Origin: Haliotis asinina | Lineage: Eukaryota; Mollusca; Gastropoda; Lepetellida; Haliotidae | NCBI RefSeq assembly: GCF_037392515.1 | Contig: NC_090283.1 | Location: forward strand, 15,499,501-15,563,500 | DNA length: 64,000 bases | Reading direction: 5' to 3' | Part shown: positions 1 to 59,276 of the stretch, piece after piece | Layout: each line of letters opens with the position of its first letter | Position numbering within the stretch: the stretch's first letter is position 1 | Notes under the pieces: generated by a model | What the model saw: only the letters and a program-made list of their open reading frames with translations | Told to the model about the DNA's origin: nothing | Databases searched by the model: none | Translations under genes and position numbers: made by a program

Positions 1-1483
1 GTATTTCTACCTCTACAAGAAACATTAAAATCATCCACAAATAGTGATCCATCTACCGAATCACTTAAAACCTTAGAAGGACTATTGATTTTAATACTAA
101 ATAAAGTCACAGACAAAATACTGCCTTGTGGAACACCCTGATCTTGATGAAAGTAGTCTGAGAGGGTTGATCCCACACGTACTTGAAACTGTCATTTAAA
201 AAATAGATATAAACTGAGGCAAGCGACCTCTCAACCCAAAAGAATGTAAATCTCTTAAAATACCATGCTTCGAGATAAAAAAGATTGATACTGTGTGCAT
301 GTTGTTTTTTAATGAAAGAATTTTAACAAATGATTCCAAACGAACCAAGTGGTCAATTGTGCTTCGGTTTTTACGAAAACCACATTGTATATCAGTGATG
401 AGATTCTTGGTTTCCAAAAACCAAACTAAGCGATTATTTACCATTCGCTCCATGGTTTTTGCAAACGCTGCTAGTTAAGGAAATAGGTCGGTAGTTTGAT
501 GGATCTGTATGATCCCTCCCAGGCTATGGAATAGAAACAACTATGGCTTTTCGCCATGAAGGGGGAAAATGTTGTGTTATCCAAATATGGTCAAAAATGC
601 CAAGTAACGTTTCAAGACAAGATTCAGGCAAGTGTTTTAAGAGTTGGTAATGGATATCATCAGGTCCTAGTGCAGTATCGCGAGCCTGTGATAGCGCAGT
701 ATGAAGTTCATGTAATGAAAATAACTCATTATAATCTTCACCATTATCGGATCTAAAATTCACTGGTTTCTTCTCTTGGTGTGTTTGACAAGTCTGGAAA
801 TTTGGATGCTAATTTGAGGAGGACGAATGTTTAGCCAAAGTTTCACCCAACTTGTTTGCAATATCAGATTTTTCAGTTAGTATGTTATTATCATTTTTGA
901 GATGCTGAATACTACTGGATTTGAAACCTTTGCCTTTAATTTTTTGGATCATATTCCATACCCTTGACATAGGAGTACGGGAATATATTTTGGAAACGAA
1001 ATTTTTCCAAGTATGACGTTTAATGTGTTTAAACGTTTAGCATAACTGATTTTTACATTATTTAAGTTATGAACAGTGGGATGAAGACGAAAATATTTCT
1101 CTGCTTTCTTCCTCTTTTTCCTAGCCTGTTTGCATTCATCATTAAACCATGGTTTGCGGATGTGTGGATTTACAGTGGACTTAGGAATAGTTTCATCAGC
1201 TATATATTTTAGTTTGTCTGAGAACATTTTAATTGGAGCAGGTACATCCATGAAAAGGTCTGGTTTAAGTTCCTTAAGGCAGGTGGCCTGAAATAATTGG
1301 CCTTTGAAAAATTCCATCTTGTTACAGGCGGATCATCGGAAGGGTTAATTGCTGTAAGTACTGTTGGAAAATGGTCACTACCACAAAGATCATTATGGAC
1401 TGACCATTCAAACTCATTATAAACGTTTCAGTCAGTGAGTGATAGGTTTAAGGAAGAATATGCTCCCGTTGCAGGATGTAAAA

Positions 1484-1999
1484 TTATGTGTCACAGCCAT
1501 CATTTAATATATATAGATTATTATCAGATATAAACTCTTCAAGAACTTTCCCTTTACTGTTGGTATCAGGACTTCCCCATAATGGGTTATGACCATTGAG
1601 ATCACCCATTATGATACAGGGTTTTGGTAATTGGTCACACAAATCTTGAAGATCGTTCTGATGGAGAATGGAAGAAGGGGAGATATACAAGGAACAAAGA
1701 GTAAGAGTTATATGTAAAGTAAGACGAACGGCAACAGCCTGAAGATTGGTTTTAAGAGGAACAGGGCTATGAATAATACCATGTCTCACCAATATGGAAG
1801 AAACACCAGTGGCTTTGTCACCAGTGGGTGAAAAGGAATAAGAATGGTATTTACGCAATTCGAACTTATCATTTTGTTTCAAGTACGTTTCTTGAAAACT
1901 AAATGCTGATGGTTTAAAATCCTCTGCTAGTGATTGTACTTCATTAAAATTGGTCCTAGGTCCTCTGCAATGCCATTGGATTAAGGAATTATTGTTCAT
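1484..1999 (-). pseudogene. LINE-alpha copy 1 ORF2 start: AP endonuclease
   Basis: A 171-aa frame beginning MNNNSLIQWHCRGPRTNFNE, with FQETYLKQND and IIMGDLNGHNPLWG, which are the N, E and D/N active-site motifs of the APE-type endonuclease that nicks target DNA. The usual WNCRG is WHCRG here, so the first catalytic Asn is altered. A stop truncates it at DGCDT. The rest of ORF2 continues brokenly to position 1. Confidence 0.75.
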
Positions 2000-3238: not shown

Positions 3239-3953
3239 ACATTGCAGGTGATATTTCGGAAAGGAAAGGAGAAACAAGACAATAAATATCTGGAAGGTAA
3301 CAAACTGGTTCCGTCCTCGCATTTTTGTCGTTTCAGTGAAGACAGCATTGTCAAACAATGAGTTGCAGCTGTCTCGTGCAAAATGTGACAAAGTGGAGAA
3401 GGTGGGTAGATGATAATTTAATGTACTTTAGGTTGTAATCTGGACAAAGTCTGACATAAAAAGGGACCAGTACATGCACAACATAATAGAACAAGGAAAA
3501 ATCAGGCGCGCCGATATTTGTCGTTTCAGACACTGAGTGAAGAACTGGAGGCATATGCTGTTTTAATAGGTGTTCCAAGGTCACAGTCCCCAGACAGGGT
3601 GGACAATAGAGAGCAGGTTCAACATGCAGGTACAGTAGACAGATCAATAATCCGTCATGTATATGTGTAGTCTGGCAGGAAACCAAACACCGTTACGATC
3701 AGTTGACTGCCAGACAATAACATTAATTACAAAACTGTGTGAGTGTATTTGTCTAACTAAGTTTCGTGTCATTTGTATGGTTTTAGGTTCCACTGTGACA
3801 ATGTGCCAATTTTAGGCCGTGTCCTGTTATGATGAGAGTCAGCTTCGCCTTCTGCCATGCCTTCATTCTGCCTGCAAACCGTGTCATGATTATCAAGCTA
3901 CACAGACGGAAGAGAAGTGCATGCACTCCCCTTCCTGAGGCCATCAGTTCACC

Positions 3954-4625
3954 GTGGAGCAGACAACAATAGATCATGTCAGACGCAATGAAGCTGTCTA
4001 TAAAGTCAACGTTGATAGTGAGATGAAATGCAGCTACATCGATGAAGATCATGATGCAGAGGCTGTGGTGTACTGTCACGAATTTGATGACAATATCTGC
4101 TCTGACTGCCATAAACACCACGACACGCCTAAACAGAATCGAAATCACAGAGTAACTGCGATCAACCAGGCAGAGAATGTCCTTATGAGGCAGTGGCTGA
4201 AAGAACCTGCTTGTAGAGACCACCCTGACAACAACCTACAGCTGTATGATCACACGTGTAAGAAGGCCGTCTATCTTATATGTGTGCAATGGGCCCACAA
4301 AGGTCACAAGAATGAAGATTTATATCAGGCCTATGGCGTAGTGAAGAGTCAACTAGAGGAGCAAGTGAAAAAGCAACAAGAGAAACTGAAATATGTCACT
4401 AACAGCGTGAGAACTGTCACGGGTCACCAAACTGAGCTGGTAGCGACACGGAAAAGACTGGAGCAAGTTGCAACTAAAGTTTGTAAAGCTGTTGCTGCCA
4501 AGTTCCTTAATCGGCAGAGGCAACTCATGAAGGAAATTCAAATGAGTCTCAAAGCCCCAAAGGAAATGGTTCAGGAGAAACTTGACACTTTACATGACGT
4601 TCATACTGCAAAAGTATCAGCGATG
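3954..4625 (+). pseudogene. Readable B-box/coiled-coil part of TRIM paralogue
   Basis: This is the longest open piece (about 225 codons) of the broken paralogue, entered downstream of the RING stop. It keeps both B-boxes, although one zinc ligand is changed (YCHEFD instead of YCHECD), and the coiled coil. It ends where the SINE (GAGT)n tail begins. It could only be translated from an internal Met and is better read as a remnant. Confidence 0.7.
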
Positions 4626-4786
4626 GAGTGAGTGAGTGAGTGAGTGAGTTTAGTTTTACGCCACACTCAGCAATATTCCAGCTATATGGCGGCGGTCTGT
4701 AAAATAATCGAGTCTGGACCAGACAATCCAGTGATCAACAACATGAGCATCGATCTGCGCAATTGGGAACCGATGACATGTGTCAT
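4625..4786 (-). repeat. (GTGA)n-tailed SINE, head-truncated
   Basis: The tail is the (GAGT)n tract at 4625-4648 and the body extends to about 4786. It contains the conserved body strings TTTAGTTTTACG, AATATTCCAGCTATATGG and GATCTGCGCAATTGGGAACC. The 5' head is missing relative to the full copy at 12961-13225. Confidence 0.85.
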
Positions 4787-5483
4787 ACCTAAACTTACTC
4801 ACGCACTGACCGTATGTAATTGCACCAACTTGTGGCATGACCACATCACCATGGCACCCCATGGCATGAATTACATTATGTAAAAAGCGGTTTAACCACA
4901 ATCCATACACGAGGTGTCATGTAGCAATTACTTCATATCTTATCAATGTTCAGAAACAAATGTCTCTAATTTTGATGTTGTAAATCCTCTGTACAGCACA
5001 ACATAAGAGAGGACCGCAGGGTCAAAATCACCATCTTCTATTCATTATGAGTTTGCTATGAAATACAGTACATGTACTCTGATGGAGAGTCAAGTTATAT
5101 ATATCCTGATATATCCGATGTGACATGTGTTATATCCTAATCATACATATCACTTAAATATTCTGGGGGCATCGCTGACTGGTTACTCACTGAATGAAGG
5201 CCAATAACGGGGTGGATGTCACAAGGCTGGTCCTCAGTAAGCCATACTTGTCGTTAAAGGCGACTGATGGGTTCGGCGGGTCAGGTTGTTTTATTTTATG
5301 ATGTTTTGGGGAAATTACAGAACTAAAAGTTACAAATATTTACATACTGACCTCAAAATGGTTTCACTTCAGCTGCAACGAACAAACGCCCCCTAAAATA
5401 GTTCCTGTTCAATATACAGTTTTTTTCAGTCCACATGGTCAAATATGTACTTGAAGAAAAAGATTAAACATATGTTTTGTATA

Positions 5484-14464: not shown

Positions 14465-14764
14465 ATATACAAACCACACTGCATGAGACAATGGACCTTC
14501 CCCACGTCCTCATCCTGCAGAAGAATCATCTGTATCTGAAGGAGAACCTTCAGGTCGAACCTGTGTTGGATGCCTTGTATCAGGAATGTATCTTCACACA
14601 GGCAGACTATGATAGATGTCGACACGCTGGGGCAGAGAAATGTCAGATGGTGTTGGAAACGCTGAAAAAGAAGGGAGTAGAAGGTTACAAGACACTCTGT
14701 GCCGTCCTCGACACCGTACAGCCTTTCATCAAGGAAAGGCTTGATAGTACCTCAACTGAAGCAG
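14465..14764 (+). CDS. TRIM gene exon: CARD death-fold domain
   Basis: The acceptor is at 14463-14464 and the donor GTAGGC at 14765. The likely start is the ATG at 14491, because the CARD begins a few residues later (LILQKNHLYLKENL). The reading VEPVLDALYQECIFTQADYD, then MVLETLKKKGVEGYKTLCAVL, follows the six-helix CARD pattern: hydrophobic helix 1 with N-R/H, the LD-L helix 2, and a KKG turn before the last helices. CARDs assemble homotypically with other CARDs in immune and death signalling. The exon is phase 1 to phase 1, which suits domain shuffling. An upstream 5' UTR exon is expected from the acceptor, but I could not place it. Confidence 0.8.
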
Positions 14765-17700
14765 GTAGGCAAACCTTACTTGATGTACGTACATATATTG
14801 CTAATCATCTAAGCAGCAAGGAAAAGGAACTTTGAACATATCAAGTGAAGTAACAGATGGAAACGGTCAAATATGTATCATGTGATATGCATACAATGGA
14901 TACCGTAGGTCTGTAAGTCTGCAAATTGAAAACTGTACTAATGGCCAATGCTCTGTCTTGAATACAAACACTTTGGCGACACTTGCCCGGTACGTCCATA
15001 TATTTGAGCATTTGGGCGCATTCAGCGTCACCCACCAGCGTTTCCCTTCTTCTTTTGTCGCGCCTCCTGCCTTCGATATGAATGCTGGTGAAATCCTGCT
15101 TGTGACCTGTGTGTTTTCTGGGACAGGTAGTCCCTTACATGTATTGACTGGCATTGCTAATGTGCTTGGAACTGGCGCTCCACTCTGCATGACTAAAAAC
15201 TCTACCATCAGCTCCCTTATGTGCTTGGAACTGGCGCTTCACACTGCATGACTATAATGTCTACCATCCGCTCCCTGATGTGCCTGTACTCGTGCTTCAC
15301 TCTCCAAGACTATAGTGTCTACCATCCGCCCTTCATTTCTTCCTGCAATTGTCAAGGAAGGAGGGACAGCGCATCATTGGTCATGGAATGATGGCTGTAG
15401 CTGGTTATCTTAGTGACGCTTCACTTTAAGTCAAAACGATTACAAACGACTCAGGTCTTGCCCAACACCCACAATGTCTGTATCAAGCAGTATTCCAATT
15501 CGTTGACTAAAGCTTTTGTTTCTAAATGTTGTGATAATGGGATGACGGACTGAAGGTGTCCTCTCTCAATCAGTACCTGTTTCTGTCGTTCAGGCTGTCT
15601 GTTTCAGTCGACCACTTGCTCCTTGTAAGCAAGATTGTGTACAGCGTAAATCTCTGAAGCACACAATGTCCTAAAAGGTTCCACATACATTCAATATGAT
15701 TTAGGTCTTGATTTTTTTGTCAAGTGTTTTCATATAAGCCTGCTTCTCTAAGGTGCCCCTTAGAAGTCTTTGGCAATCAAGAGTGCCTTTTAGAGTGACA
15801 AATTTCGTCTTTCAGTCATATGATAGCCGGACACTAAAACAAACGTGTAACCGAATGCAAACTGCCTCAGTATATCCCCCCACCCCGCCTCTGTTTCTTA
15901 TGATAAATCAAACAACATAATTTCTTTAAAAGGAAAGTGTTATATTTTTTAGGTAATACAGATCTCGTCTTTGTTATCAAGGACAAACTGGAAGCTATGT
16001 ACAAAAAGGAACTTGCTAAAAAAGATGGAGAGATAGCTGACTTGAAATCTGTAAGTTGTGATGATACATCGAAAGTACGTCTTCTTGTAAGGCTTAAATG
16101 CCCTTTGTCTTGTGAATGGTTGAAAATCGATAACACGCCTTTAGTGTTTTCCAAAGATAATGAAACACAAAACATACTCTGTCAATAACTGTGAATGTTA
16201 TATAAGACGTGCAGTCTGACAAAGTATCTGGTCGTTTATTTAAAAGGAGTCGGTATTTACTTGTTTTCTGGGCCCGGCCGTTTATTTTCAGACGATAGAA
16301 GGACTTGAACAACAAGTGGAACAAAGCAACGTTGATCATGCTGAACTGGAAGGAATCATGAAGAAAGAAAGTGATGAACACATATCAGAGATAGCAAAGA
16401 AAAACGAGGAAATTGAAACACGTAAGTTGACACTTATATATGACAATACTGTTACAAACAAACAAAGGTGATAACTAATGTGCTGGGTGTACTTGAAATG
16501 TATATTGACATTGTTAAAGTATTGCATCTGAAGGCAACAATAAAAAGACAAAACAAAAAAAACCCATATGCACACAGAAGCCCATAGAGAAACTCACACA
16601 TCGTACAATGCAACCAAGTATTGTAGAGTAGTAAGTAATTTAGTATATCTATAGATAATATAGTTTATATTGTCAGTGTCGATGGTGATATCCGCGATAT
16701 TCCATGTTGTAATACTTCTGAATAGAAAGGGAGCTATTTGCAAATAAATGACCATAAATATCTGGAAGGTGACAAACTGCTATTTGGCTCAGTCCTTCCA
16801 TTTTTGTCGTTTCAGTGAAGACAGCTGTGTCAAAGTTAAAGCATGAGTTGCAGCAGTGTCATGCAAAATGTGACAAAGTGGAGAAGGTGGGTAGATTATA
16901 ATTTAGTGTACTTTAGGTCGTAATGTGGACAAAATCTGAAATAAGAAAGGAACCAGTGTATGCAAAACATAATAAAACAAGGACAAATGAGATGAAATGA
17001 CATTTGTCGTTTCAGGCACTGAGGGAAGAACGGGAGGCATATGATGCTCTTGTAGGTGTTTCAAGGTCAGATTCTCCAGACAGGGTGGACAATAAAGAGC
17101 AAGTCCAACATGCAGGTACATTAGACAGATCAATAATCGGCCATGCATATGTGTAGTCTGGCAGGAAACCAAACACTGTCTAACTGCGGTTCTTGTCATT
17201 TGTATGGTTTTAGGTTCCACTGGGACAATGTGCCAGCTTTCGGCTGTGTCCTGTTGTGATGAGAGTCAGCTTCGCCTTCTGCCATGCCTTCATTCTGCCT
17301 GCAAGCCATGCCTTGATCACCAAGCTACACAGACGGAAGAGAATTGCATACACTGTCCTTCATGTGCCCGTCAGTTCACCGTGGAGCAGACAACAATAGA
17401 TCATGTCAGACGCAATGAAGCTGCCTATAAAGACAACGTTGATGGTGAGATGAAATGCAGCTACATCGATGAAGATCATGATGCAAAGGCTGTGGTGTAC
17501 TGTCACGAATGTGATGACAATATCTGCTCTGACTGCCATGAACACCACGACAAACGAAAACGGTATCGAAATCACAGAGTAACTGCGATCAGCCAGGCAC
17601 AGAATATCCTTATGAGGCAGTGGCTGAAAGAACCTTATTGTAAAGATCACCCTGACAACAAACTGCAGCTGTATGACCACACGTGTAAGAAGGCCGTCTG

Positions 17701-18755
17701 TCTTATATGTGTGCATGGGGCCCACAACAGGCACGAGAAGGAAGACTTGAATCAAGCATATGACGAAGCGAAGGGACAGCTAGAGGAGCAAGTGATAAAG
17801 CAACGAGATAAACTGCAATATGTCGCTAAAGGTGTGAAAACTGTCACGGGTCACCAAACTGAGCTGGTAGCGACTCAGAAAAGACTGGAGCAAGTTGCAA
17901 CTAAAGTTTGTAAAGCTGTTGCTGTAAAGTTTCTTCATAGACAGAAGCAACTCATGCGGGAAATTCAAATGAGTCTTCAAGCCCCAAACGAAAGGGCTCA
18001 AGAGAAACTTGACTCTTTACATGGCGTTTATTCGTCAATAGTATCAGCGATAGACTACACCCAGAGAACACTTGAATCTACGAGACGAGAGGAGCTCATT
18101 ACTCTCAAAGATGTACTGCAGACGAAATGTGATGAAAATCTGAAGTGGATGCTTCCAGAAGATGACACACGAGACACGAGAATCATCCTTTCCTTTCAAG
18201 GCCAGAGAGCTTTGGAGGAACTTATCGCCACATTTGGTTCTCTCGCCTCAAGTCTAAACATGGACCATATTCCAGATTCTCAACCCAGCTTACAAGGTAA
18301 TTACATAATCGAAACATGGACCAGTGTCTCACTAGAGTAAGTGAACCCTTCCTTTCTTGGTTCATCCCATTTGAACACTCTTACTTAAAACATACTGCTT
18401 GTTAATCAGCTATATTAATGTTCCTCGTAGGCACAGAAATATAATACCTTCAACCGATTTAATAATTATGGTGAATATTAGTTGAAAAGTGACAATCAGT
18501 TATGGATTGCGTTTTACATTGGTCTAGTCTGTACTCTATTACATTTACATAATACTCATGAGAAATGGACCGGTGAATCGATTTCAGTGCGATTAAGATT
18601 GGTCTGGTCTGTATTCTGTTTCAGATCTGATGACGATGACAAAGAGAGAACAAGAAACTATCATGGTATGATGTCATCACACAGTAAATGTAGTCTTCAA
18701 AATACGCACATGTTTGTATAGAGGTGTGTTTATGTATGCATGTGCATGTGTGTGC

Positions 18756-18839
<84 letters not shown>

Positions 18840-21800
18840 GTGTGTTTGCATGCGTGCAAATAGGTTGGGATGGTAGTGTCGGGTGATGATGTGTGTGTGT
18901 TTGGGTTGATGGATGGACAGATGCATGTACGTAGGCACACACATATTGTGCCACACAAGTGATCTGTTTGATGCAAGTGTTGTTGTTTCAGATGCATGAA
19001 GGGAGGTGGCAGCAACTTACACAGATGATATGTCACTTCATCCCAGGTACGTAGCGACACAAGGATGCAGGGTGGGAAAACTACACAGCAAATAATACAA
19101 GCAACTTTTAAACATTACAGTGTATAATAACCATAAAAATGTAAATGTATTTTCTACCTACATCATGTCACGTTATATCATGGAACTGTTCTGTAAATAT
19201 TAATAATGAGATATTTGTATGAAATTGAATATAAATATTTCTGTCTGATCAGAACTCCAAGAATCAGACAGCAGAGTGGCGAGACCACAGGAACCTGAAC
19301 AGCTGACATCAGAGGAAGTATATAGCATTTTTATAAAAGTACGTCCAATATTCCTATTAGTTCTTCACTGCACACTTTTTTTTATCGCAATGGAATTGAG
19401 AGGTCATTAAATTGAGAGCATGTCCTCGTAACATGATGGTATTCACTCAGCCATGCACATGGATACTACCGCTTTCATTATGCATTCTCTCAATTTAAAC
19501 TACATGACGTGGAAGATAGTCGACTAAATGTTCCTATATAAACCGTTTTCATGTATTTACTCTCTATATTTTACACCTTTACTTTCAGCTCATCCCCGTT
19601 GAGGCATTTTCACATGGTATTACCCTGAAAGGTATGTACACTATGATGTATTTTCATCCTCCTGTAGGGCGCCACATGCCTTCTCTGTTCGCAAACAGCA
19701 GGCACCCTCATTGATCTTCATCAAGCCGTCCCTAACGTTTCCCTGCCATTTTGTATAGTGGCCCCAACGAAATCTCTTTTTCAGCAGAAAGTATGGAATT
19801 CTGATGACGATAACGTTTTCAATAATAAAACTAGTTATTCGGCAAATATTTAGACCTCAAAATCCCTCAAATTCATGAAGAAATACTGTAACTGCTGCTT
19901 GGAGTTTATATTTCGCCAGGAACTCGGTCAATCATAATGTTCTTTCCACATAGCTGTTAAACGTTTATCAGCTTAACACGAAAATAACGTTTTTAGCAAA
20001 TGTATGGTTGAAGTGTTCAGTTGATTTAAGGTGACGATTCCAGCCTGTGCCCCAAACCGTTGTTTATGGTACAACAATTATCACTGATGCTTAGTATCAA
20101 CTTGCATACACACATCACCCCGACACCCCTGGTATGAGTTACATAATGTACAGGAGGTTTAACCATATCCCACTGACGAGGTATCCTGTTACAATTACTT
20201 CATAACTTATCAATGTTCAGAAACAAATGTGCCATTGTGATGTAACTCTTCTTTACAGGCTGCGCCACATTGCATACCATCAGGAAGGACTGTGGTATTG
20301 TTTTCATTATCTGTAAGTACATTTTGATCATCATGAGTTTTCAATGAGTGAGTGAGTGAGTGAGTTAAAGTTTAACGTCACATCGGCAATATTTCAGCCA
20401 TATCGCGACGGGAACGTAACATTAAAATGGAATATATTAGTATTATAAAAACCTGTCGACGAAGGACAGTAAAACAACTAGAACATCACAGAAAAGAATG
20501 TAAAACTAGTAGCTATGCCTAAAACAATTTATCTATAAAGGACAATACAATATAAAACTGGGCTATAGATTGCTAACAACTGAATGGAGATCACCATACT
20601 AGGGACCATGGGGACTTACAGTACCTTTGCTACCTTCATGGACCCTAGCTGGATTTACATCATCCCCTCAGCCATCAGCAATTTGGGAAATCTAGCCACA
20701 CAGTAAAAAACACTTATACTACGATTAAAAACCTGGAAATTTAGAAAATACTTTCAATGTTTGTGGACTTACGTACCCTCTCAGGAGGACAATAGTTTTA
20801 CAGTACTTCAACCCCCTTTGAGGATACAGCCACTAACAATTCTAGTTACTAATCTAAACTACCAATTATTAAAATACATATATCTACAGAATCGCAGTGC
20901 TCAAATTTCTACCATGAAATCAATTTCCTTTAAAAAACCAATGATTAAATGAGAACTAACAGTTGTAAAAAGATCCTTGATAGTTTTGACATTGAAATAC
21001 TTATCCCTTGTGATGGAGAATTCAACACAGTCAAGCAGAATATGCTTGACCGTAACTCTCTCATCACAAGGGATACAAAACGGAGGATCCTCACCTTTTA
21101 ACAGATACTTATGGGTATATCTTGTATGGCCAATACGACATCGTCGTATGATTACCTCTTCAAATCTCGACTGACAACCCAAGTGGGTATAACCAATGTA
21201 GGGTTTTATTTCATGTAGTTTATTGATATCTACTTGGGTGTCCCACTTCTTCTGCATCAGATCACGGATGTAAGTTCTAATGCTCGCTTTGTAATCAGAG
21301 TATGGAATAAGAAGTGGTGTCACAGATTTGTTGAGTGCTGCCTTGGCAGCAAGATCGGCAATTGCGTTACCGGAAATACCTACGTGGCTGGGTAACCAAC
21401 AAAAGACGATGTCGTATTGGCCAGTGGCAAGATTATTATACAATTCAATAATTTCAAATAAAAGTGGATGTTTACAAGAGATATTTTTAATAGCCTGAAG
21501 GCAAGAAAGAGAGTCGGAAAAGATTATATATTGTTTACGTTTAGGGTGTCTTTCAATATATTTAAGAGCTGTTAGTATGGCGTTAGCTTCAGCTGTAAAA
21601 ATGGAGCTGTTACCTGGAATTCTAGAAGATATTGTTCTGGATCCAATGACAGTGGCACAAGCCACTGCACCACCGTCCTTGGACCCATCTGTAAATAAGG
21701 ATTTATAATTGCTATATTTATGTTTTAATTGATTATATTCTTGTTTATACTGTAATTCATTAGTTTCTGATTTTTTAAATGAAGTTAATGTTAGATCAAC

Positions 21801-24800
21801 TTGTGGCCTAACCAACTGCCACGGAGGAGAAGAAAGAAGACGGGAGGGAGCTATGTTTTCCAGCTCAATGCCAGCCGAAGAAAGAAAGGGTTTAATTCTG
21901 TGCCCAAGAGGTGGAACAAGAGAAGACCTCTTGTCGTATAAATTTTCATAAAGTGGATTAAACACACAATTATATGCAGGATTAGATTCATTAGAATATA
22001 ATTTAGTGATGTACTGTAAAGATAATTTTATACGACGTTGAGTAAGAGATGGTTCATCGGTCTCAACGTAGAGACTGTCAATAGGTGAAGTTCTGAACGA
22101 CCCAAGACAAAGTCTTAGGCCTTGATGGTGGACAGAATCAAGAAGTTTTAGGTTGCTTTTACAGGCTCCACCATATACGATGGAGCCATAATCGAGTTTC
22201 GAACGAACCAGTGATCGATATAGGTGCAAGAGGGTAGTTTGATCCCCTCCCCACTTTGAGTTGGAAACAACTTTCAACAAATCTAGTGCCTTCAGGCATT
22301 TAGCTTTAAGGGATTTAATGTGCGGTAAGAAGGTTAAATGAGAATCGAAAATTAAACCCAAGAACTTGGCCTCCTTAACAACTTGGATGGGAGTGCCATT
22401 TAAAGATAGTTCAGGGTCTTTATGCGGTTTATATTTTCTACAAAAGTGTATACAATTAGTTTTGGATTTAGAAAATTTAAAACCGTTTTCAAGACACCAT
22501 TTATTTATTTTATTTAAACACAACTGTAATTGCCGTTCAATAGTACGCATATTTTTACCACGACAGGAAATATTAAAATCATCCACAAAAAGTGATCCAT
22601 CAATTGAATCATTTAAAACCTTGGATAAACTGTTGATCTTAATACTAAATAAAGTGACGGACAAAATACTACCTTGAGGGACACCCTGATCCTGACTGTA
22701 ATGATCAGACAGGGTTGAACCCACTCGGACTTGAAATTGCCTGTCTTTTAAAAACTGTGATATAAAAAGAGGCAAACGACCTCTTAACCCAAAGTCATGT
22801 AAATCCTTTAAAATGCCATGCTTCCAGGTCGTATCGTAAGCTTTCTCAAGATCAAAGAAGATCGATACAGCATGTTGTTTATTTACTATAGCATTTTTCA
22901 CGAAGGATTCTAAACGTACCAAATGATCAATGGTACTACGGTTTTTCCTAAAACCACACTGTATATTTGTGATCAGGTTATTGGTTTCAAGATACCAATT
23001 TAATCTGTTATTCACCATACGTTCCATGGTTTTACAGACACAACTTGTTAAAGAGATTGGTCTGTAATTAGACGGATCGCTATGATCCCGGCCAGGTTTT
23101 GGAATGGGGACTACAATGGCATTTCGCCAGGAAGCTGGGAAATTTCCTGATGTCCATATTGTATCAAAAATATTAAGCAACGTTTCGAGACATGATTCGG
23201 GCAAATGCTTTAGGAGCTGATAGTGGATATCATCAGCCCCTGTTGCTGTATCATGAGCTTGCTCAAGGGCGCACTGTAGCTCATATAGTGAAAATAATTC
23301 ATTGTAATCTTCACCGTTGTCTGAGTTAAAATTTAATCTTTTCTTCTCCTGCTGTTTCTGAAACTTTTGAAACTCAGGGACATAATTGGATGAAGATGAA
23401 TGCGTGGCGAGAGTTTCGCCAAGTTTATTAGCAATGTCAGATTTAATAGTTAGTAAATTATCACCATCCCTCAGATGGCGGACAGTAGATCTAGAACCCT
23501 TGCCCTTTATTCTTTGAATCATATTCCACACCTTTGACATAGGCGTGCGTGAATTTATTTTAGAAACGTAATTTCGCCATGACTGGTGCTTATTTTGTTT
23601 GAAAGTACGTCTGGCTTTGGCATTTAAAATTTTTACTTTATCTAAATTATGTACAGTAGGATGTCTGCGAAAATACTTTTCCGCTTTCTTCCTACACTTT
23701 CTGGCCTGTTTACATTCATTGTTGAACCATGGCTTACGAATGTGTGGAACTGCAGAGGACTTGGGTATAGTTTGGTCAGCAATGTTATTAAGTGTATCAG
23801 AAAACAACTGTATAGGATCTTCGCTATTCACGAAAACATCAGGTTTTAATTGTTCAGAACAAAGTGTGTTATATAATGACCAATCAGCCCTAGAGAAGTT
23901 TCGCCTGGATAAGGCTGGATCATCCCCTGGGATAATGCTTTTAAGAATGGTGGGGAAATGATCACTACCGCATAGGTCATCATGGACCTCCCAATCAAAT
24001 TCATTATATAAATTAGAATCAGCAAGAGATATATCCAGGGAAGAGTATATTCCCGTAGCTGGATGTAAATAAGTGGCTGAATCATCATTAAAAATACATA
24101 AGTTATTATCGGATATGAATTCCTCGATGATTTTACCTTTAGTATTTGTGTTGACACTTCCCCAAAGTGGGTTGTGTCCGTTAAGATCACCCATGACGAG
24201 ACATGGCTTCGGAAGTTGATCATATAGATTTTGAAGATCTGATTGTTGAATATTTAGTTTTCAATGAAACACAGGCCTCTGATGGAGAGTGTGGCTTTGC
24301 TCGAAAATCAACGTCATTAACGGCTCGTCATATAGCTTCGTTTCTTTTGTTAATCCAGCATATAAACATAACGTGTGCTTCTCACTGTATATTAGGTCAT
24401 CTCTTGTTTTCCCAGTATAACCGCATTTGAGGTTTTGGTTTTGAAGGACGGGTTTTACTTTTTGCTTGAAAGACTTCTTCCCAGGTTTTACCTTTCCTAA
24501 CTCTATATGAACATCAATGGTCAAATGACACATGCATCTTTGAAATCAATTGAAAAATATCGTACAGGATTAAACTCAAATGTTTCCCCAGCGGGATTGG
24601 AACCGTAAATCACAGGTCTGTAGGAAGACGCTCTACCGCACGGCCACCGGGCCGACAAAGATGGTGGGGTTAATTTATCTACTTATAGTAACTGCCATTA
24701 CATTGATTTTATGCGTGCTTCAGTTATTGTTATGTAACTTCATTAAATGATCATCTACATTGTAATTATCCGTCATTGACGGTATATATATATAAGTGAA

Positions 24801-27372
24801 AACACTTCTACTCGGTTTTGGTAGACAACGTAAAACCATCGGGGTCAGGATTTCACCCCGTCTCCGATTTTCCATTGTCTACCAAAACCTCGGAGGCGTG
24901 TTTTCTCCTATACATAAGACATAATTTTCTTTAGGGAAACTCTTCTGGCATTTACTAATCTACACCATTGCCCACCACCCGTGGTGATCCGAGTTAGAAT
25001 TGCTTTTTAGTAACCAATACTTTTCGTTAAAGGCAACTGAGGTTCTGGGGCTCTCTGATCTGGTTGACACATGTAATATCCCTGTTGTATAGATCTCTTA
25101 CCGTTGATCACTGGAATGTTTGGCCCAATGTTACGGTTAAAAATTTGCCGTGATATAAGGTGTAAGACATCCAATGTGAACCAGCAAAACAGAACAAAGA
25201 CAAGTCTAAAAAATTCAAATATTGTATGATTTAGCAAAGAGAGCAAGTTATACAAAGTCACAAGTCAGTTTCACAATACCGATTTCAAATACAATACAAA
25301 TGAGACAAAATCTAAGGCAACGGGTCACAAAATATTTAACAAACTCACCAAAGTCTTGATATGAAAGTGAGAAACAGTTATGCAGAATCTAACACAGCGG
25401 TCGGTCAGGCAGCGGCTATGCACATCAAGCGTTGCATAGCCGCTGCCTGACCGACCGCTGTGTTAGATTCTGCATTAACAGTTTGATATTACTCCATTTA
25501 ATCTCTGTGTCCATCGACAACACGGCATGCAGTATTGATATATACATTCAGTGACTTCCTGAAAGTTCGAGCACATACGACCACTGATATGGAATGCTCT
25601 AGAACAGTCTCCCGAAAGTCAACAAATAGAAAACCAAGGGCAGATAACTCCAAAGTACTGCCTTAGAGGCGTGCCACGTAAATACGTCTCTGTAGGAAAT
25701 GTCACCTATAATAACTAACACTAATACCTTGTGACCCAATTACAACTACAGCAATAATAATTAATAACAACTCAAATCATGGAAAGTACACTCTAGTAAC
25801 ACCACGCACAACAACAACAACAACAACAACAACAAAAACAACCACCCCGACAGGTGTGAATTTGCACCATTTATAAGAACTCTTTAACCACTACTTTATT
25901 TTCAAAAACATTAGTTTTCACTGGTTTAAAGGAGGATAAAATGTGACAAAACATGTTGTGTTATTACATGTTGTGTGAGGAGAACTGGAGAACCAATAAA
26001 TTGATTGGAAATATTTACATACTGGTCTTGTCTGAAATTGTTTCATAACAGTTGCAAAGGACGCGCCCCCAAAATTGTTACTTTCGAACCTGCAGTGGTC
26101 TTCAGTCAACATAGTTAAATATTTATTTAGCGAAAAGGAGGACATGTTTGATATGCATGTATATTCTATTGATTATTGTTATACTGCAATATTTTAGTGC
26201 ATGTATTATAGTCCATATCATTCACAAAGACGTATCTCAATCAACAGACAAGACCAGACAATTAACCTCCCAACACAGGGAGTGTCATGAAACTGTGTGC
26301 AGTGACTGAAGAGGTATGAGTTTAGAATACGGCTTTATTGTGTTATGATGTTGAAACATCTACATGTTAAGACAGTAGTGTCTATTTCTGGCCACCGTCA
26401 CAATAAACTACATTGTGGGTCAAACACAGTTTGGTGAGAAAAGTATTTAAACGAAGTTTTACATGTTTACCAATGCACGTAGAATTGTATGACAATTTAA
26501 ATACCCACATGAGTAGTATCATGTCGTTATTATTACTATCTATGACACGAGTATCTTTGTATTTACAAACACACAAAAATAGCAGTCGATCATTTACTGC
26601 GCTGTTTTGGAGTCACTGAAACGAGGCAAAGAATACAATGATATCTTGTAGGAAATACAGTTGCTAAACTTCATGAAATAAATTTGCAGGTCCTATACTC
26701 AAACTGGACGCTGCTCGAGCCAACGCAGACAGGTGCCATGTTACTACAGACGGTGAGCTGGTCAACTCGCAGTCCGCCACACAAAACACGGACTGTGACA
26801 GACTGCAGAGATTGAGCGGCACATGTAGCTCCACTCCCATCCCCCTTCCACCATCCCCCTATACTGTCACCCCTGTCCTCCCCACAGCACGATACTGGGA
26901 GGCCCACACCAGGGTGGGTGTGGTGGCTGGAGAGTGGTGGAGGCCTGTTCTAGAGGTGGGTGTTGGGGAAGAGAGCCACGTGGACAGTATGTGGTATGTT
27001 TGTGATCAGCGCCGCTCCTGGTGTGTCCGTGTAGGGAGCTGTGTAAAACACCTGGGGAGTGTCTGTACCAGGTTGTATTTGGCGGGGGTGTGGGAGAAGT
27101 GTTACAGAAACACAATGTCTGACACATCCGGCACACAGGCCACCCTTCACTACGGCGTTGTTTTGGATGTCAGGAGGGGTAGAATAGGATTTATTGACGT
27201 GGGCATGTCGGCTGTTTTAGGGAAGGTTGATGTGGAGTTCAAGGAGGATCTCCTCCCAGTATTTACTGTTGGTGAGCATAGTCGCTGCACAGCAAACATG
27301 AAGGTAGTCAGTGGGGAGGAGATCCATATGTCTGACACCAAGAAATCACTCATTAATAAAGTCCTGGGCTAA
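14465..27372 (+). CDS. CARD-TRIM-B30.2 gene (12 exons, 905 aa predicted)
   Basis: This is the gene-level entry; exons are listed separately. The exons are 14465-14764, 15953-16050, 16292-16421, 16816-16886, 17016-17115, 17214-18296, 18625-18665, 18992-19046, 19253-19338, 19589-19631, 20259-20312 and 26690-27372. Each internal exon has AG before it and GT after it, and intron phases alternate 1 and 0 consistently. From the ATG at 14491 the joined frame is 2,718 nt with no internal stop. The order is CARD (about 6-85), coiled coil (95-200), RING-like (231-275), B-box 1 (306-350), B-box 2 (365-405), coiled coil (405-500), a linker of small exons, and B30.2/SPRY (about 680-905). TRIM proteins are usually cytosolic E3 ubiquitin ligases, a CARD recruits signalling partners, and B30.2 binds ligands, so an innate-immune sensor is the inferred role. 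The last intron holds a LINE. If intron 6 is retained, the frame stops at 18340 and B30.2 is lost. Small linker exons are the least certain part. Confidence 0.75.
15159..15335. repeat. About 60-bp tandem repeat, three units
   Basis: GTGCTTGGAACTGGCGCT and CTCTACCATC/GTCTACCATCCGCTCCCT recur three times with divergence. It lies in the first TRIM intron. Confidence 0.7.
15953..16050 (+). CDS. TRIM gene exon: start of first coiled coil
   Basis: A 98-nt exon preceded by a T-rich tract ending in AG and followed by GTAAGT. It starts in phase 1 and ends in phase 0. It reads NTDLVFVIKDKLEAMYKKEL and continues with charged heptad-like residues (AKKDGEIADLKS), so it likely begins a coiled coil that separates the CARD from the RING. 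Confidence 0.65.
16292..16421 (+). CDS. TRIM gene exon: coiled coil
   Basis: A 130-nt exon, phase 0 to 1, with a TTTTCAG acceptor and GTAAGT donor. It encodes a Glu/Lys-rich helix beginning TIEGLEQQVEQSNVDHAELE, continuing the coiled coil between CARD and RING. Confidence 0.65.
16816..16886 (+). CDS. TRIM gene exon: coiled coil (duplicated in paralogues)
   Basis: A 71-nt exon, phase 1 to 0, with a GTTTCAG acceptor and GTGGGT donor. It encodes LKTAVSKLKHELQQCHAKCD and ends VEK. Homologous exons lie at 3337-3401 (two codons shorter, still in frame) and, weakly, 57587-57651. Conservation of splice sites between copies supports a real exon. Confidence 0.7.
17016..17115 (+). CDS. TRIM gene exon: linker before RING
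   Basis: A 100-nt exon, phase 0 to 1, with a GTTTCAG acceptor and GTACAT donor. It encodes ALREEREAYDALVGVSRSDS followed by PDRVDNKEQVQHA. Paralogous copies at 3530-3629 and about 57872-57991 keep the same end and the same donor, which supports the exon boundaries. Confidence 0.7.
17214..18296 (+). CDS. TRIM gene exon: RING-like, two B-boxes, coiled coil
   Basis: A 1,083-nt exon, phase 1 to 1, after a TTTTAG acceptor; the donor is GTAATT at 18297. The RING-like part keeps LLPCLHSACKPCL and CPSC, but the first Cys pair is irregular (Cys231, then Cys238/239, instead of C-x2-C), so zinc binding at site 1 may differ. B-box 1 reads CSYIDEDHDAKAVVYCHECD then NICSDC; B-box 2 reads CKDHPDNKLQLYDHTCKKAV then CLICVHGAHNRHE. 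A helical region of about 100 residues follows (QLEEQVIKQRDKLQYVAKGV onward), typical of TRIM dimerisation. Family knowledge: RING and B-box act in E2 recruitment and self-assembly. The open frame runs to a stop at 18338-18340 if the donor is not used, which would give a protein without B30.2. The broken paralogue at 3787-4625 aligns along its length. Confidence 0.85.
18625..18665 (+). CDS. TRIM gene small linker exon
   Basis: A 41-nt candidate exon, phase 1 to 0, with a GTTTCAG acceptor and GTATGA donor; it reads DLMTMTKREQETIM. It is needed to restore phase between the RING exon and the next exon, which supports it indirectly. Its short length makes it uncertain. Confidence 0.45.
18757..18845. 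repeat. Compound (TA)n(TG)n microsatellite
   Basis: A run of TA dinucleotides passes directly into TG/GT repeats inside a TRIM intron. Long antisense frames over it are low-complexity artefacts. Confidence 0.95.
18992..19046 (+). CDS. TRIM gene small linker exon
   Basis: A 55-nt candidate exon, phase 0 to 1, with a GTTTCAG acceptor and GTACGT donor; it reads MHEGRWQQLTQMICHFIP. No domain is recognised. Confidence 0.5.
19253..19338 (+). CDS. TRIM gene linker exon
   Basis: An 86-nt exon, phase 1 to 0, between TGATCAG and GTACGT. It reads ELQESDSRVARPQEPEQLTS then EEVYSIFIK. A charged, probably flexible linker before the C-terminal domain. Confidence 0.55.
19589..19631 (+). CDS. TRIM gene linker exon
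   Basis: A 43-nt exon, phase 0 to 1, between CTTTCAG and GTATGT; it reads LIPVEAFSHGITLK. No domain is recognised. Confidence 0.5.
20259..20312 (+). CDS. TRIM gene linker exon next to LINE insertion
   Basis: A 54-nt exon, phase 1 to 1, between CTTTACAG and GTAAGT; it reads GCATLHTIRKDCGIVFII. The preceding intron (about 20090-20258) is homologous to 4800-4996, and a decayed version of the exon follows there (4997-5048). A LINE target duplication begins only 24 bp after the donor. Confidence 0.55.
20336..24267 (-). mobile_element. LINE-alpha copy 2, 5'-truncated, perfect 12-bp target duplication
   Basis: AGTTTTCAATGA flanks it at 20336-20347 and 24256-24267; the element is 20348-24255. It has a (GTGA)n 3' end, a 3' UTR to about 20900, and an open ORF2. 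The 5' end is cut within the endonuclease. It sits antisense in the last intron of the TRIM gene. Confidence 0.95.
20901..24194 (-). CDS. LINE-alpha ORF2 (partial): endonuclease end, RT, RNase H
   Basis: An uninterrupted frame of 1,097 codons from MGDLNG, open upstream to the truncation. It starts inside the endonuclease (MGDLNGHNPLWG; SDHFPTIL is its closing motif). The RT carries PIPKPGRDHSDPSNYRPISL, FDLEKAYDTTW (motif A), GVPQGSILSVTLF (motif B) and LFVDDFNIS (motif C), all intact. RNase H follows with LFTDGSKDGG, FTAEANAILTAL, IIFSDSLSCLQ and WLPSHVGISGNAIADLAA, giving the full acidic set. The C-terminus has CRIGHTRYTH and CIPCDERVTVKHILLDC, a zinc-binding-like tail. It would lack DNA nicking because of the truncation. 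The RNase H domain places the family in the I-like group. The intact frame means the insertion is young. Confidence 0.95.
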   Translation of the reverse strand: MGDLNGHNPLWGSVNTNTKGKIIEEFISDNNLCIFNDDSATYLHPATGIYSSLDISLADSNLYNEFDWEVHDDLCGSDHFPTILKSIIPGDDPALSRRNFSRADWSLYNTLCSEQLKPDVFVNSEDPIQLFSDTLNNIADQTIPKSSAVPHIRKPWFNNECKQARKCRKKAEKYFRRHPTVHNLDKVKILNAKARRTFKQNKHQSWRNYVSKINSRTPMSKVWNMIQRIKGKGSRSTVRHLRDGDNLLTIKSDIANKLGETLATHSSSSNYVPEFQKFQKQQEKKRLNFNSDNGEDYNELFSLYELQCALEQAHDTATGADDIHYQLLKHLPESCLETLLNIFDTIWTSGNFPASWRNAIVVPIPKPGRDHSDPSNYRPISLTSCVCKTMERMVNNRLNWYLETNNLITNIQCGFRKNRSTIDHLVRLESFVKNAIVNKQHAVSIFFDLEKAYDTTWKHGILKDLHDFGLRGRLPLFISQFLKDRQFQVRVGSTLSDHYSQDQGVPQGSILSVTLFSIKINSLSKVLNDSIDGSLFVDDFNISCRGKNMRTIERQLQLCLNKINKWCLENGFKFSKSKTNCIHFCRKYKPHKDPELSLNGTPIQVVKEAKFLGLIFDSHLTFLPHIKSLKAKCLKALDLLKVVSNSKWGGDQTTLLHLYRSLVRSKLDYGSIVYGGACKSNLKLLDSVHHQGLRLCLGSFRTSPIDSLYVETDEPSLTQRRIKLSLQYITKLYSNESNPAYNCVFNPLYENLYDKRSSLVPPLGHRIKPFLSSAGIELENIAPSRLLSSPPWQLVRPQVDLTLTSFKKSETNELQYKQEYNQLKHKYSNYKSLFTDGSKDGGAVACATVIGSRTISSRIPGNSSIFTAEANAILTALKYIERHPKRKQYIIFSDSLSCLQAIKNISCKHPLLFEIIELYNNLATGQYDIVFCWLPSHVGISGNAIADLAAKAALNKSVTPLLIPYSDYKASIRTYIRDLMQKKWDTQVDINKLHEIKPYIGYTHLGCQSRFEEVIIRRCRIGHTRYTHKYLLKGEDPPFCIPCDERVTVKHILLDCVEFSITRDKYFNVKTIKDLFTTVSSHLIIGFLKEIDFMVEI
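24582..24655 (-). repeat. tRNA-like sequence, probably a SINE head or tRNA relic
   Basis: On the minus strand TGGCCGTGCGGTAGAGCG resembles an A box and GGTTCCAATCC a B box, but the acceptor and T stems do not pair well and no clear anticodon arm is seen. Confidence 0.4.
24798..24905. repeat. Fold-back element with about 47-bp arms
   Basis: The left arm (24798-24844) and right arm (24856-24905) are imperfect reverse complements centred on GGTTTTGGTAGACAA / TTGTCTACCAAAACC. A spacer of about 11 bp separates them. It lies in the last TRIM intron next to a TATATA run. Confidence 0.75.
25000..25130 (+). repeat. Degenerate SINE copy
   Basis: The order of blocks (CGTTAAAGGCAACTGA, GGTTGACACATGT, GTTGATCACTGGA) follows the SINE body from head to centre. 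Confidence 0.5.
25165..25805 (-). repeat. Decayed gypsy-family LTR fragment in intron
   Basis: It aligns with 11705-12250 and 63650-64000 (CCAGCAAAACAGAACAAAGA, GTCTCCCGAAAGTCAACAAA). It contains the perfect hairpin at 25381-25474. Confidence 0.7.
25381..25474. repeat. Perfect inverted repeat, 42-bp arms, 10-bp loop
   Basis: The arms at 25381-25422 and 25433-25474 are exact reverse complements around CATCAAGCGT. The left arm corresponds to normal LTR sequence; the right arm has no counterpart in the other LTR copies. Confidence 0.95.
25807..25844. repeat. (ACA)n microsatellite
   Basis: About ten ACA units in the last TRIM intron. Confidence 0.9.
26690..27372 (+). CDS. TRIM gene last exon: B30.2 (PRY-SPRY) domain
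   Basis: A 683-nt terminal exon after AATTTGCAG, entering in phase 1 and ending at TAA 27370-27372. The PRY half is seen in PILKLDAARANADRCHVTTD; the SPRY half in ARYWEAHTRVGV, then VLEVGVG, GVVLDVRRGRIGFIDVG and LLPVFTVGE. These match the LDxxTAN, YWEV, GVxLDxxxGxIxFxD and LxPxF hallmarks. The domain is about 215 residues, close to the usual B30.2 size. In TRIM proteins it binds the target. This exon is much more GC-rich than its surroundings, consistent with selection on coding sequence. The frame agrees with the upstream chain. Confidence 0.85.
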
Positions 27373-36404: not shown

Positions 36405-36851
36405 CAAAACCACCTAACGTACAGTAAATTAGAGAGGCTGATAACGCACAGTAAAGAATAGAGGCTGGTAACGTACAGTAAAGAATAGAGGCTGGTAACG
36501 TACAGTACAGTAGAGAGGCCGATAATGTATGCAGCACTGTAACGTATAGAGGCTTATGCCGTACAGTAAAGTACATTGGCTGATAACATCCACTGAAGTA
36601 TACAGGTTGATACATGTAGGGGTACATCAGCAATACTTAGAAGCTGATAACGTACAGTAAAGCACACTGGCTGATTTCATACACTGAAGTATACAGGTGC
36701 ATATGCTCAGTAACGTATAGAGGCTGGTAATGCTCAGTAAAGTACATTGACTGATGTCATACACTGAAGTATACAGGCTGATCCGTTCAGTAATGTAAAA
36801 AGGCTGATAACGCACAGCGCAACTATGTATAGATGCTGAAAATGTACAGTA
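36405..36851. repeat. AGGCTGATAACGTACAGTAAAG minisatellite
   Basis: Imperfect units of about 26-36 bp carry GGCTGRTAACGTACAGTA and CACTGAAGTATACAGG. The array continues at 53822-53910 beyond the LINE complex, so the LINE split it. Confidence 0.85.
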
Positions 36852-41738: not shown

Positions 41739-41828
41739 CTGCCCCGTGAGCAATTCTGGAAGACTATCAGAGAGCGTAAGAGTGCACAGGATACCAGTGC
41801 AAACGCACAACAGACCATCTAACTCAAC

Positions 41829-48904: not shown

Positions 48905-48947
48905 GAAGGCACGGAAAAAGGCCGAAAATTATTTCCGTCATCATCCT

Positions 48948-51092: not shown

Positions 51093-51279
51093 GGTGAGGA
51101 TCCTCCGTTTTGTATCCCTTGTGATGAGAGAGTCACGGTCAAGCATATTCTGCTTGACTGTGTTGAATTCTCCATCACAAGGGATAAATATTTTACAGTT
51201 AAAACAATGAAGGATCTTTTTACCAGCGTTAATTCATTTTTAATTATAGGTTTTTTAAAAGAAATTGATTTTTTGATGG

Positions 51280-57586: not shown

Positions 57587-59050
57587 AAAGTCACAGATAT
57601 CCATGACAGGTGCTGATTTACAACACCGTAAAACTAAATGTGAGATAGTGAAAAATGTCAGGCTAAGTTTGTTCAATTCTTTTTGGAGTAGTCACATGCA
57701 GTGCATACGAAAAACACCTGTCTTATCGTGGTTTGCTGATAGAGAGGTGACTATTGCAATATGCGAGAAAAAAGTGTAAAATGTGTTTTTTGACATTGAA
57801 AGTGAGGAACATCTTCAGAAATAAAATGTCAAAAGATCACATACGATCAGCAGAGGATGCGTTTTGATGAAGTTAAAAATATCGTTACAGAGACTTCAAG
57901 AAAAACAGGAGGAATATGATGGTCCAGTGGGTGTTCCAAGGTCACCGTCTCCAGACAGCGTGGACAATACAGAACAAGTCCAACATCCAGGTACAGTGTG
58001 TGAAGGGACAAGCTTTCTTTCAAACCGAAACAGTTATCTCAGAGGTGAATACTAGCATGAATGCATAACCCTATATCCGGTCCATTTAATATTACCTCTT
58101 TTGTATTGCTTTACTTCGATCAGATTTGTTAGAGCGAATGTGCCATATTTTTTTAATGCAATCCTGTTGTGATGAGAGACAGCTTTGTCTTCTGCCATGC
58201 CTTGATCACCAAGCTACACAGACAGACGGAAGAGAACTGTATACACTGCCTTTCCTGTGGACATGAGTTCATCGTGGAGCAGACAATAGTAGATCATGTC
58301 AGACACAATGAAGCTGTCTATAAAGTCAACGTTGATGGCGAGATGACCATGTAGCAAAACCTGTGATGTACAGTGACGCCAAGTTATGTTCTGACTGTCA
58401 TAAACTCCATGACTCGCTGCGACCAAACCAAAGCCACAGGGCGAGAGTGAGATCAACCGGGCAGAGCATATCCCTATGAATCAGAGGCTCACATAATCTG
58501 ATTGCACAGACCACCCTGAAAACAAACAGAGGCACAGAATGTCCGTTGAAAAGGGTCAGCTGGAGGAGCAAGTACGGAAGCAACAAGTTGAACTGAAGGA
58601 TGTCACTGCCAGGATGGGAAGTGTCTCCTGTCACCAACATGAACAAGCAGAGACGCAGAGAAAGCTGAAAGAGGACATCACGGCAGCTTGCTAAAGTGTT
58701 GCTGTAAAATTTCTTCATCGACAGAGACAACTCATGAAGGAACTTAAAATGAATCCTCAAGCCACAAACGAAAGGGTTCAAGAAAAACTTCGCATTTACA
58801 TAACGTTCATACTGCAATTGTATCAGCGATAGACTACGCCCAGAGAACACTTGAAAATACAGGACGAGAGGAGCTCATTTCTCTCACAGATGTATTGCAG
58901 ACGAAATGTGATGAAACTTCCAGAAGACACTTGAGATACCAGAATCCATGTTACTTCTCAACGCAAGAGAGGAACTCATCGATACAATTGATGGACTTGC
59001 CTGCAATCTTGACGTGGATGACATTCCAGAGAAACGACCTACTCTACAGG
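57587..59050 (+). pseudogene. Second broken TRIM paralogue
   Basis: The exon-like pieces are 57587-57651 (resembling LKHELQQCHAKC), about 57872-57991 (GVPRSPSPDSVDNTEQVQHP, donor GTACAG) and a RING/B-box/coiled-coil region from about 58165. The last reads CIHCLSCGHEFIVEQTIVDH and then breaks by stop and frameshifts. Remnants of the coiled coil (58560-58800) and of the ILxFQ region (58840-59040) follow in changing frames. It is older than the copy at 3337 by its mutation load. There is no B30.2 downstream. Confidence 0.7.
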
Positions 59051-59276
59051 GTTACTATACTTTACAAAGTGTTAGGCACAAAACTATGTTCCTGTTACAA
59101 AGAAGTCTCATTTAAAAGTTTTGCCAAGAGTTCATTGTATGCAAATACACATAACTGTAAATCGGAAACATTTACCACATTCCTTGTATGAGTTACAACT
59201 TCATTTGAAACTGATAACTTCCTTCTCCAGTGATATTCTCCCCAAGTTTACCATTTGTGTCCCATAGGCTCTAAAA

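What the first reader, a model, noticed from the sequence alone, without database searches (positions are those of the whole stretch)
14465..27372. CARD-RING-B-box-B30.2 gene with a pyrin-like plan in a mollusc-like genome
Twelve exons with good splice sites and consistent phases give one 905-aa frame joining a CARD, a TRIM core and a B30.2 domain. Vertebrate pyrin pairs a different death fold (PYD) with B-box, coiled coil and B30.2 and triggers inflammasomes. A CARD fused to a TRIM in an invertebrate suggests a single-protein sensor that links ligand recognition, ubiquitination and death-fold signalling. I do not know of a described protein with this exact order.
Basis: partly seen in the sequence, partly recalled or inferred. 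Interest (0 to 1): 0.9.

Follow-up and report, generated by a model that had tools for sequence, protein, structure and literature searches.

The report
Abalone CARD-TRIM-B30.2 immune receptor family
The window holds one gene, in an abalone genome, for a protein that joins a cell-death signalling domain (CARD) to a TRIM-type scaffold and a recognition-type domain (B30.2); it belongs to an unnamed abalone gene family that resembles, by convergence, the plan of the human inflammation sensor pyrin.

Summary
Twelve coding exons (14491-27372, +) join in phase into exactly 905 aa: CARD, coiled coil, RING-like domain, two B-boxes, coiled coil, B30.2. Twelve full-length relatives in four Haliotis species align over the same order. 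A tandem copy starting 39 kb beyond the gene repeats it, stop-free in its three large exons.

Corrections: the RING is non-canonical (C-x7-C first pair in 25 of 26 CARD-type copies), so ligase activity is doubtful. Pyrin likeness is in plan, not membership: no PYD.

In seven recent paralogues B30.2 is 83% identical against 92% for CARD and TRIM core. The B30.2 exon has moved between this and a second abalone TRIM family: TRIM cores separate at 100/100, B30.2 domains interleave, as in fish NLR-B30.2 genes. Best reading: a lineage-specific set of cytosolic receptors with exchangeable sensor and fixed CARD output. No transcript or functional evidence was available. Ten paper searches found no description.

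The parts
14491..14764 (+). Exon 1 coding part: CARD (aa 1-91); exon begins at 14465 after an acceptor, 26 nt before the ATG
   Evidence: Pfam CARD 1.1e-7, 32.2 bits vs cut-off 23.9; splice sites
15953..16050 (+). Exon 2: coiled coil 1
16292..16421 (+). Exon 3: coiled coil 1
16816..16886 (+). Exon 4: coiled coil 1
17016..17115 (+). Exon 5: end of coiled coil 1 / linker
   Evidence: matched in both dead copies in the window
17214..18296 (+). Exon 6: RING-like zinc domain, B-box 1, B-box 2, coiled coil 2 (aa 225-585)
   Evidence: Pfam zf-B_box 4.8e-7; TRIM28 RBCC 1.5e-16 by sequence; Foldseek KAP1 tripartite motif 1.3e-6
18625..18665 (+). Exon 7: linker
18992..19046 (+). Exon 8: linker
19253..19338 (+). 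Exon 9: linker
19589..19631 (+). Exon 10: linker
20259..20312 (+). Exon 11 (54 nt) leading into B30.2; absent from some annotated relatives (e.g. P0006)
   Evidence: 63% identical to the H. asinina P0002 peptide over 19 aa, score 61 vs next 36
26690..27372 (+). Exon 12: B30.2 (PRY-SPRY) domain and stop codon
20344..24260 (-). LINE-type retrotransposon (endonuclease, RT, RNase H ORF 20904-24260) in intron 11; not part of the product
3278..5044 (+). Copy A remnant: coiled-coil exons, TRIM exon with two in-frame stops, probable trace of exon 11 (E 0.004); no B30.2 found; a CARD piece that may belong to it lies outside the window (L009)
57866..59070 (+). Copy C remnant: frame-broken TRIM exon, no CARD or B30.2 found

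Best explanation
A member of an abalone family of cytosolic innate receptors. Inferred mechanism: the B30.2 domain binds a microbial or altered-self ligand; the RBCC coiled coil dimerises the chain and the B-boxes cluster the dimers (recalled TRIM behaviour); clustering brings the N-terminal CARDs together to nucleate a CARD assembly that recruits a CARD partner (caspase or adaptor) and starts death or inflammatory signalling. The RING-like domain would mainly help assembly; ligase activity is uncertain. Shown by computation: gene structure, domain order, B30.2 fold, TRIM-core homology, strongly conserved CARD, B30.2 exchange between two TRIM families, tandem duplication. Inferred: ligand binding, clustering, CARD signalling, immune role.
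For: 12-exon in-phase model. 12 full-length relatives in 4 Haliotis species. Tandem copy D, C4:15566011-15608650, same exon order, no stops in CARD, RBCC and B30.2 exons. dN/dS gene vs D: CARD 0.29, RBCC 0.46, B30.2 0.73. CARD has the lowest mean entropy of seven parts, 0.58, with 40% invariant columns. 12 of the 14 most variable B30.2 sites lie in predicted loops, p 0.0017. Seven recent paralogues, 21 pairs: CARD 91.6%, RING-B-box-CC 91.7%, B30.2 83.1% mean identity. RBCC tree separates the two TRIM families 100/100; B30.2 tree does not, one-clade p-AU 1.7e-4. Passages of PMC11508797 report CARD-bearing NLRC in abalone, caspase-1 and GSDME homologues in Mollusca and no PYD-type ASC in invertebrates.
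Against: No transcripts, ligand or partner. Database relatives are computer annotations. dN/dS is below 1 in all three parts measured, so positive selection is not shown. By mean entropy the linker (1.39) and coiled coil 1 (1.10) vary more than B30.2 (0.86), and RING, B-boxes and coiled coil 2 (0.80-0.83) are close to it. Against copy D the RBCC is less identical (71.9%) than the B30.2 (74.2%). In seven recent paralogues only 7 of 12 most variable B30.2 sites lie in loops, p 0.26. Without P0022 and P0015 the exchange test weakens to p 0.025.
Confidence: 0.58

Rival explanations
1. A regulator rather than a receptor: a TRIM-like scaffold or E3 that uses its CARD to dock on other CARD proteins (MAVS-, NLRC- or caspase-like) and modifies or sequesters them, much as TRIM25 and RIPLET act on RIG-I (recalled).
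For: The B30.2 structural matches listed include TRIM25 and RIPLET. The genome is rich in CARDs: at least 150 matches, so docking partners exist.
Against: The RING is non-canonical in 26 of 26 copies (25 C-x7-C, one Ser). A regulator of one fixed target would not be expected to keep its CARD while its B30.2 differs most sharply among recent paralogues and is exchanged between families.
Confidence: 0.27
2. Two adjacent genes (CARD-TRIM and a separate B30.2 gene) wrongly joined across the 6.4-kb intron that holds the LINE.
For: Five of 18 CARD-bearing database models end before B30.2 and one has a truncated B30.2; the same B30.2 also sits on other N-termini.
Against: Exon 11 lies before that intron in phase and matches the relatives' sequence leading into B30.2. 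12 of 18 models run through. Copy D repeats the order. The B30.2 exon starts in phase 1 after an acceptor.
Confidence: 0.04
3. A recently dead gene: still open, flanked by dead copies.
For: Two copies in the window are broken. No entry in the protein search was identical to it; the best full-length one is 77%.
Against: One open frame over 2718 nt with GT-AG at all 11 introns. dN/dS below 1 against copy D in all three large exons.
Confidence: 0.07

Closest known systems
Pyrin (MEFV, TRIM20)
   Different: CARD not PYD, extra coiled coil, RING-like domain present, two B-boxes, multigene family
Zebrafish NLR-B30.2 family (PMC4852459, passages incl. abstract)
   Same: Large lineage-specific family; B30.2 homogenised across groups by gene conversion, with exon shuffling, while the core domain keeps groups apart
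   Different: Core is NACHT-LRR, not RBCC
TRIM class IV proteins (RING-B-box-CC-B30.2), e.g. TRIM25, finTRIM
   Same: RBCC core and B30.2
   Different: No death fold; canonical RING (both recalled)
PML-like abalone TRIM family (P0027-P0047)
   Same: B30.2 59-64% identical to the window's for 21 of 21, same genus, exchange of B30.2
   Different: TRIM core only 21-25% identical for 21 of 21; no CARD in the listed Pfam domains; C-x2-C RING in 16 of the 17 whose RING was extracted
CARD-coiled-coil proteins (CARD9/CARMA; recalled) and cIAPs (BIR-UBA-CARD-RING; recalled)
   Same: CARD followed by coiled coil; CARD and RING in one chain
   Different: No B-box or B30.2; cIAPs carry BIR domains

Membership tests
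TRIM / RBCC | B-box zinc finger(s) | tested here: met
   zf-B_box 30.3 bits vs cut-off 24.1; ANCHR-like B-box 24.9 vs 27, just below its cut-off
TRIM / RBCC | Long coiled coil after the B-boxes | tested here: met
   Helix 216-352 of the exon-6 model; aligns with TRIM28 RBCC
TRIM / RBCC | Canonical C3HC4 RING with first pair C-x2-C | tested here: not met
   C-x7-C in 25 of 26 CARD-type RINGs, Ser in the other; last pair C-P-C in 12 of 26, not in this protein. A RING-like fold is modelled at pLDDT 69-89 from residue 51 on, but the first Cys (residue 46) lies at about 34; Foldseek RING matches E 0.06-0.3
TRIM class IV | C-terminal B30.2 (PRY-SPRY) | tested here: met
Pyrin (TRIM20) | N-terminal PYD | tested here: not met
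   CARD over cut-off; no PYD family listed at E up to 1 or 10 (filters drop most above 0.1)
Pyrin (TRIM20) | Nucleates an inflammasome | not testable with these tools
   needs a protein assay
NLR-B30.2 | NACHT NTPase domain | tested here: not met
   no NACHT listed in the Pfam scan of the 887-aa version
CARD protein | CARD | tested here: met
   Pfam 1.1e-7 here, 4e-11 in P0008; profile matches RAIDD CARD 6.1e-4. CARD not folded
cIAP (CARD-RING) | BIR domains | tested here: not met
   none listed
E3 ubiquitin ligase | Ligase activity | not testable with these tools
   needs biochemistry

The most novel reading that the evidence does not exclude
A protostome counterpart of pyrin and of fish NLR-B30.2 receptors, invented independently in abalones: one-chain inflammasome-like sensors in which ligand binding by B30.2 directly seeds a CARD filament without a PYD adaptor, and in which new specificities spread by copying the B30.2 exon among CARD-TRIM, plain TRIM and perhaps further receptor chassis in the same genome.
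Probability: 0.4. Interest if true: 0.82.

Novelty: new variant of a known kind. Interest (0 to 1): 0.63.

Why it matters
Inflammasome biology is best known from vertebrates. A mollusc family with a fixed CARD output and an exchangeable B30.2 would show that the death-fold + TRIM + B30.2 plan arises repeatedly. It would also give a direct test of how animals without antibodies diversify intracellular recognition. Abalones are farmed and suffer viral and bacterial disease (recalled), so the repertoire could have practical use.

Tried and rejected
Own-genome protein searches, meant for a family count, did not complete (below). One family search was answered (PF00619, 150 of 235 candidates scored and listed, a lower bound: the window's own CARD is not in the list). 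The eight loci it gave are 3.2 kb each, too short to show a TRIM exon; 4 of 8 match our CARD at 36-40%. NCBIfam gave nothing useful. The CARD-only database searches (7 of 139 and 16 of 228 candidates) returned only Haliotis. They need shared five-letter words and missed known members, so absence outside Haliotis is not shown. One search listed 75 proteins, all Haliotis, the weakest at 9e-59; P0076, a CARD-type relative, was missing, so that list is incomplete too. A two-gene and a dead-gene reading were considered and judged unlikely. I rejected filing it as pyrin or as a proven E3. The CARD was not folded: both fold jobs went to the B30.2 and TRIM exons.

Results against my reading: by mean entropy B30.2 is not the most variable part (linker and coiled coil 1 exceed it), and against copy D the RBCC diverges more than B30.2. 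The loop enrichment held in 17 sequences (12 of 14, p 0.0017) but not in seven recent paralogues (7 of 12, p 0.26). The B30.2 tree's bootstrap had not settled, and I had seen an interleaved FastTree before testing.

Rows dropped: one search used 16 CARD-type and 16 PML-like rows. Left out were P0001 (two TRIM units), P0024 and P0025 (B30.2 present but no RING motif extracted), CARD-type models without a complete B30.2 (P0012, P0016, P0017, P0019-P0021, P0023, P0026, P0076), and PML-like P0036, P0038, P0043, P0044, P0046, P0048. 'CARD-type' means by TRIM core; some such models (P0001, P0005, P0014, P0018 and others) have no CARD in the database entry.

Papers: passages were read in PMC8195603, PMC9334734, PMC3137616, PMC4852459, PMC11508797 and PMC2575513; all others were seen only as listings. 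Preprints and most subscription papers are not held.

Full report
What was checked. A first pass gave 11 coding exons and 887 aa with GT-AG introns and consistent phases. Alignment with annotated relatives showed a missing short exon; a scan of stop-free in-phase AG..GT candidates from 19640 to 26600 found 20259-20312 with score 61 against 36 for the runner-up.

The RING. CARD-type copies have an odd first zinc pair: C-x7-C in 25 of 26 segments, Ser for the first Cys in the other. In 12 of 26, not in this protein, the last pair is C-P-C rather than C-P-x-C. The second abalone TRIM family has C-x2-C in 16 of 17 extracted RINGs. The first Cys is kept in 25 of 26, so it may still be a zinc ligand, though the model does not place it with confidence. 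E3 activity cannot be assumed. From general knowledge, the E2-contact residue between the first two Cys and the basic residue just after the last Cys are not in their usual places.

The family. The joined protein finds 75 proteins, all Haliotis (H. rufescens, rubra, cracherodii, asinina), named only by computer. Eighteen clusters carry a Pfam CARD; 12 run to a complete B30.2 (rufescens 6, asinina 3, cracherodii 2, rubra 1), one to a truncated B30.2, five stop earlier. One of the 12, P0003, has extra TRIM-like sequence before the CARD. Nothing outside Haliotis appeared in two CARD-only searches (7 of 139, 16 of 228 candidates), but those searches are word-limited.

The neighbourhood. The window lies at C4:15499501-15563500 of a 1.14-Gb genome. 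In the 283 kb around it I see four copies on one strand: A, a rearranged dead copy with a TRIM exon at window 3750-4628 and probably the CARD piece in L009; the gene itself; C, a dead TRIM remnant at window 57866-59070; and D, at C4:15566011-15608650, with CARD, coiled-coil exons, TRIM exon, linker exons and B30.2 in the same order. D is stop-free in CARD, RBCC and B30.2. Against D, amino-acid identity is 92.3% (CARD), 71.9% (RBCC) and 74.2% (B30.2), and dN/dS 0.29, 0.46 and 0.73; dS differs between parts (0.13, 0.36, 0.20), which conversion could cause. Against dead copy A exon 6 gives dN/dS 0.55.

How the parts vary. Among 17 sequences the CARD is the most conserved part (mean entropy 0.58, 40% invariant columns). 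B30.2 mixes invariant scaffold with a few very variable positions: 21 of 227 sites have six or more residue types, more in number than any other part but less dense than the linker (16 of 93); 12 of the 14 with highest entropy lie in predicted loops (p 0.0017). Its mean entropy (0.86) is below that of the linker (1.39) and coiled coil 1 (1.10). In seven recent paralogues (21 pairs) CARD and RING-B-box-CC2 are 92% identical, coiled coil 1 85%, B30.2 83%, linker 79%; loop enrichment is not significant there (7 of 12, p 0.26).

Exchange of the B30.2 exon. PML-like abalone TRIMs are 21-25% identical to the window's TRIM exon (21 of 21 rows) but 59-64% identical to its B30.2 (21 of 21). In trees of 16 + 16 sequences the cores split 100/100, while the B30.2 domains interleave, and the best tree with CARD-type B30.2 as one clade is rejected (lnL 89 lower, p-AU 1.7e-4). 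Without the long branch P0022 p is 1.2e-7; without P0022 and P0015 it is 0.025. The classes were set by TRIM-core type, not from the B30.2 tree, but I had seen an interleaved FastTree first. A third group of long Haliotis proteins (P0049-P0075) carries this B30.2 at 51-58% identity; no Pfam domains are listed for them. Zebrafish NLR-B30.2 genes show the same behaviour, with conversion across groups in B30.2 (PMC4852459, passages).

Mechanism. The plan suggests recognition by B30.2, assembly through coiled coil and B-boxes, output through CARD-CARD contact. Passages of PMC11508797 report CARD-NACHT-LRR NLRC in abalone, caspase-1 and GSDME homologues in Mollusca and no PYD-type ASC in invertebrates, which makes a CARD a natural output in place of a PYD. 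This is inference; nothing here measures ligand, assembly or signalling.

Relation to what is known. SPRY-like domains joined to TRIM, NACHT or death-like domains are known as a theme (PMC8195603, passages), and that paper reports TRADD-N fused to TRIM parts in invertebrates. The specific chain CARD-CC-RING-like-B-box-B-box-CC-B30.2 was not found described in the ten searches listed. I rate it a new variant of a known kind.

Noticed in passing
genome of the window (G000): At least 150 CARD matches (150 of 235 candidates scored) in one genome, some in clusters (for example C10:30.06-30.76 Mb, C8:8.82-8.85 Mb): a very large CARD repertoire.
   Followed up: partly
P0049-P0075: Long Haliotis proteins with the same B30.2 but unrecognised N-termini; P0049 (no Pfam family at E 0.01, only a weak leucine zipper at 0.03) has two repeats whose text looks to me like a degenerate P-loop/helicase-like unit (eye only).
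   Followed up: no
P0001 and P0003 (both H. rufescens): Models with two TRIM units, or an extra TRIM tail in front of the CARD: tandem copies fused by annotation or real read-through.
   Followed up: no
window 8113-10344 (-): 744-aa ORF with a weak RT match (3.5e-6, 27.3 bits, just under cut-off), Penelope-like by eye.
   Followed up: partly
window 1-1654, 36851-39754, 45378-46172, 48452-51843: Further copies of the LINE-type element found in intron 11, 72-86% identical; the ORF at 48882-51089 (+) has an RT domain.
   Followed up: partly
window 41823-42578 (+): Endonuclease domain of another retroelement (Pfam 1.6e-8) with ORFs going on to about 44778; not similar in DNA to the intron 11 element.
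   Followed up: no
window 61450-62092 (-): Retroelement integrase piece (Pfam rve_3 8.7e-9 for 61450-61878).
   Followed up: partly
contig C4, 83,059,240 bases: Close in length to the H. asinina contig of 83,060,790 bases that carries P0002, yet none of 14 H. asinina proteins tested matched over 95% in the 283 kb around the window: species or assembly not settled.
   Followed up: partly
window 15160-15326: Tandem repeat of a 59-bp unit, 2.8 copies, in intron 1.
   Followed up: no
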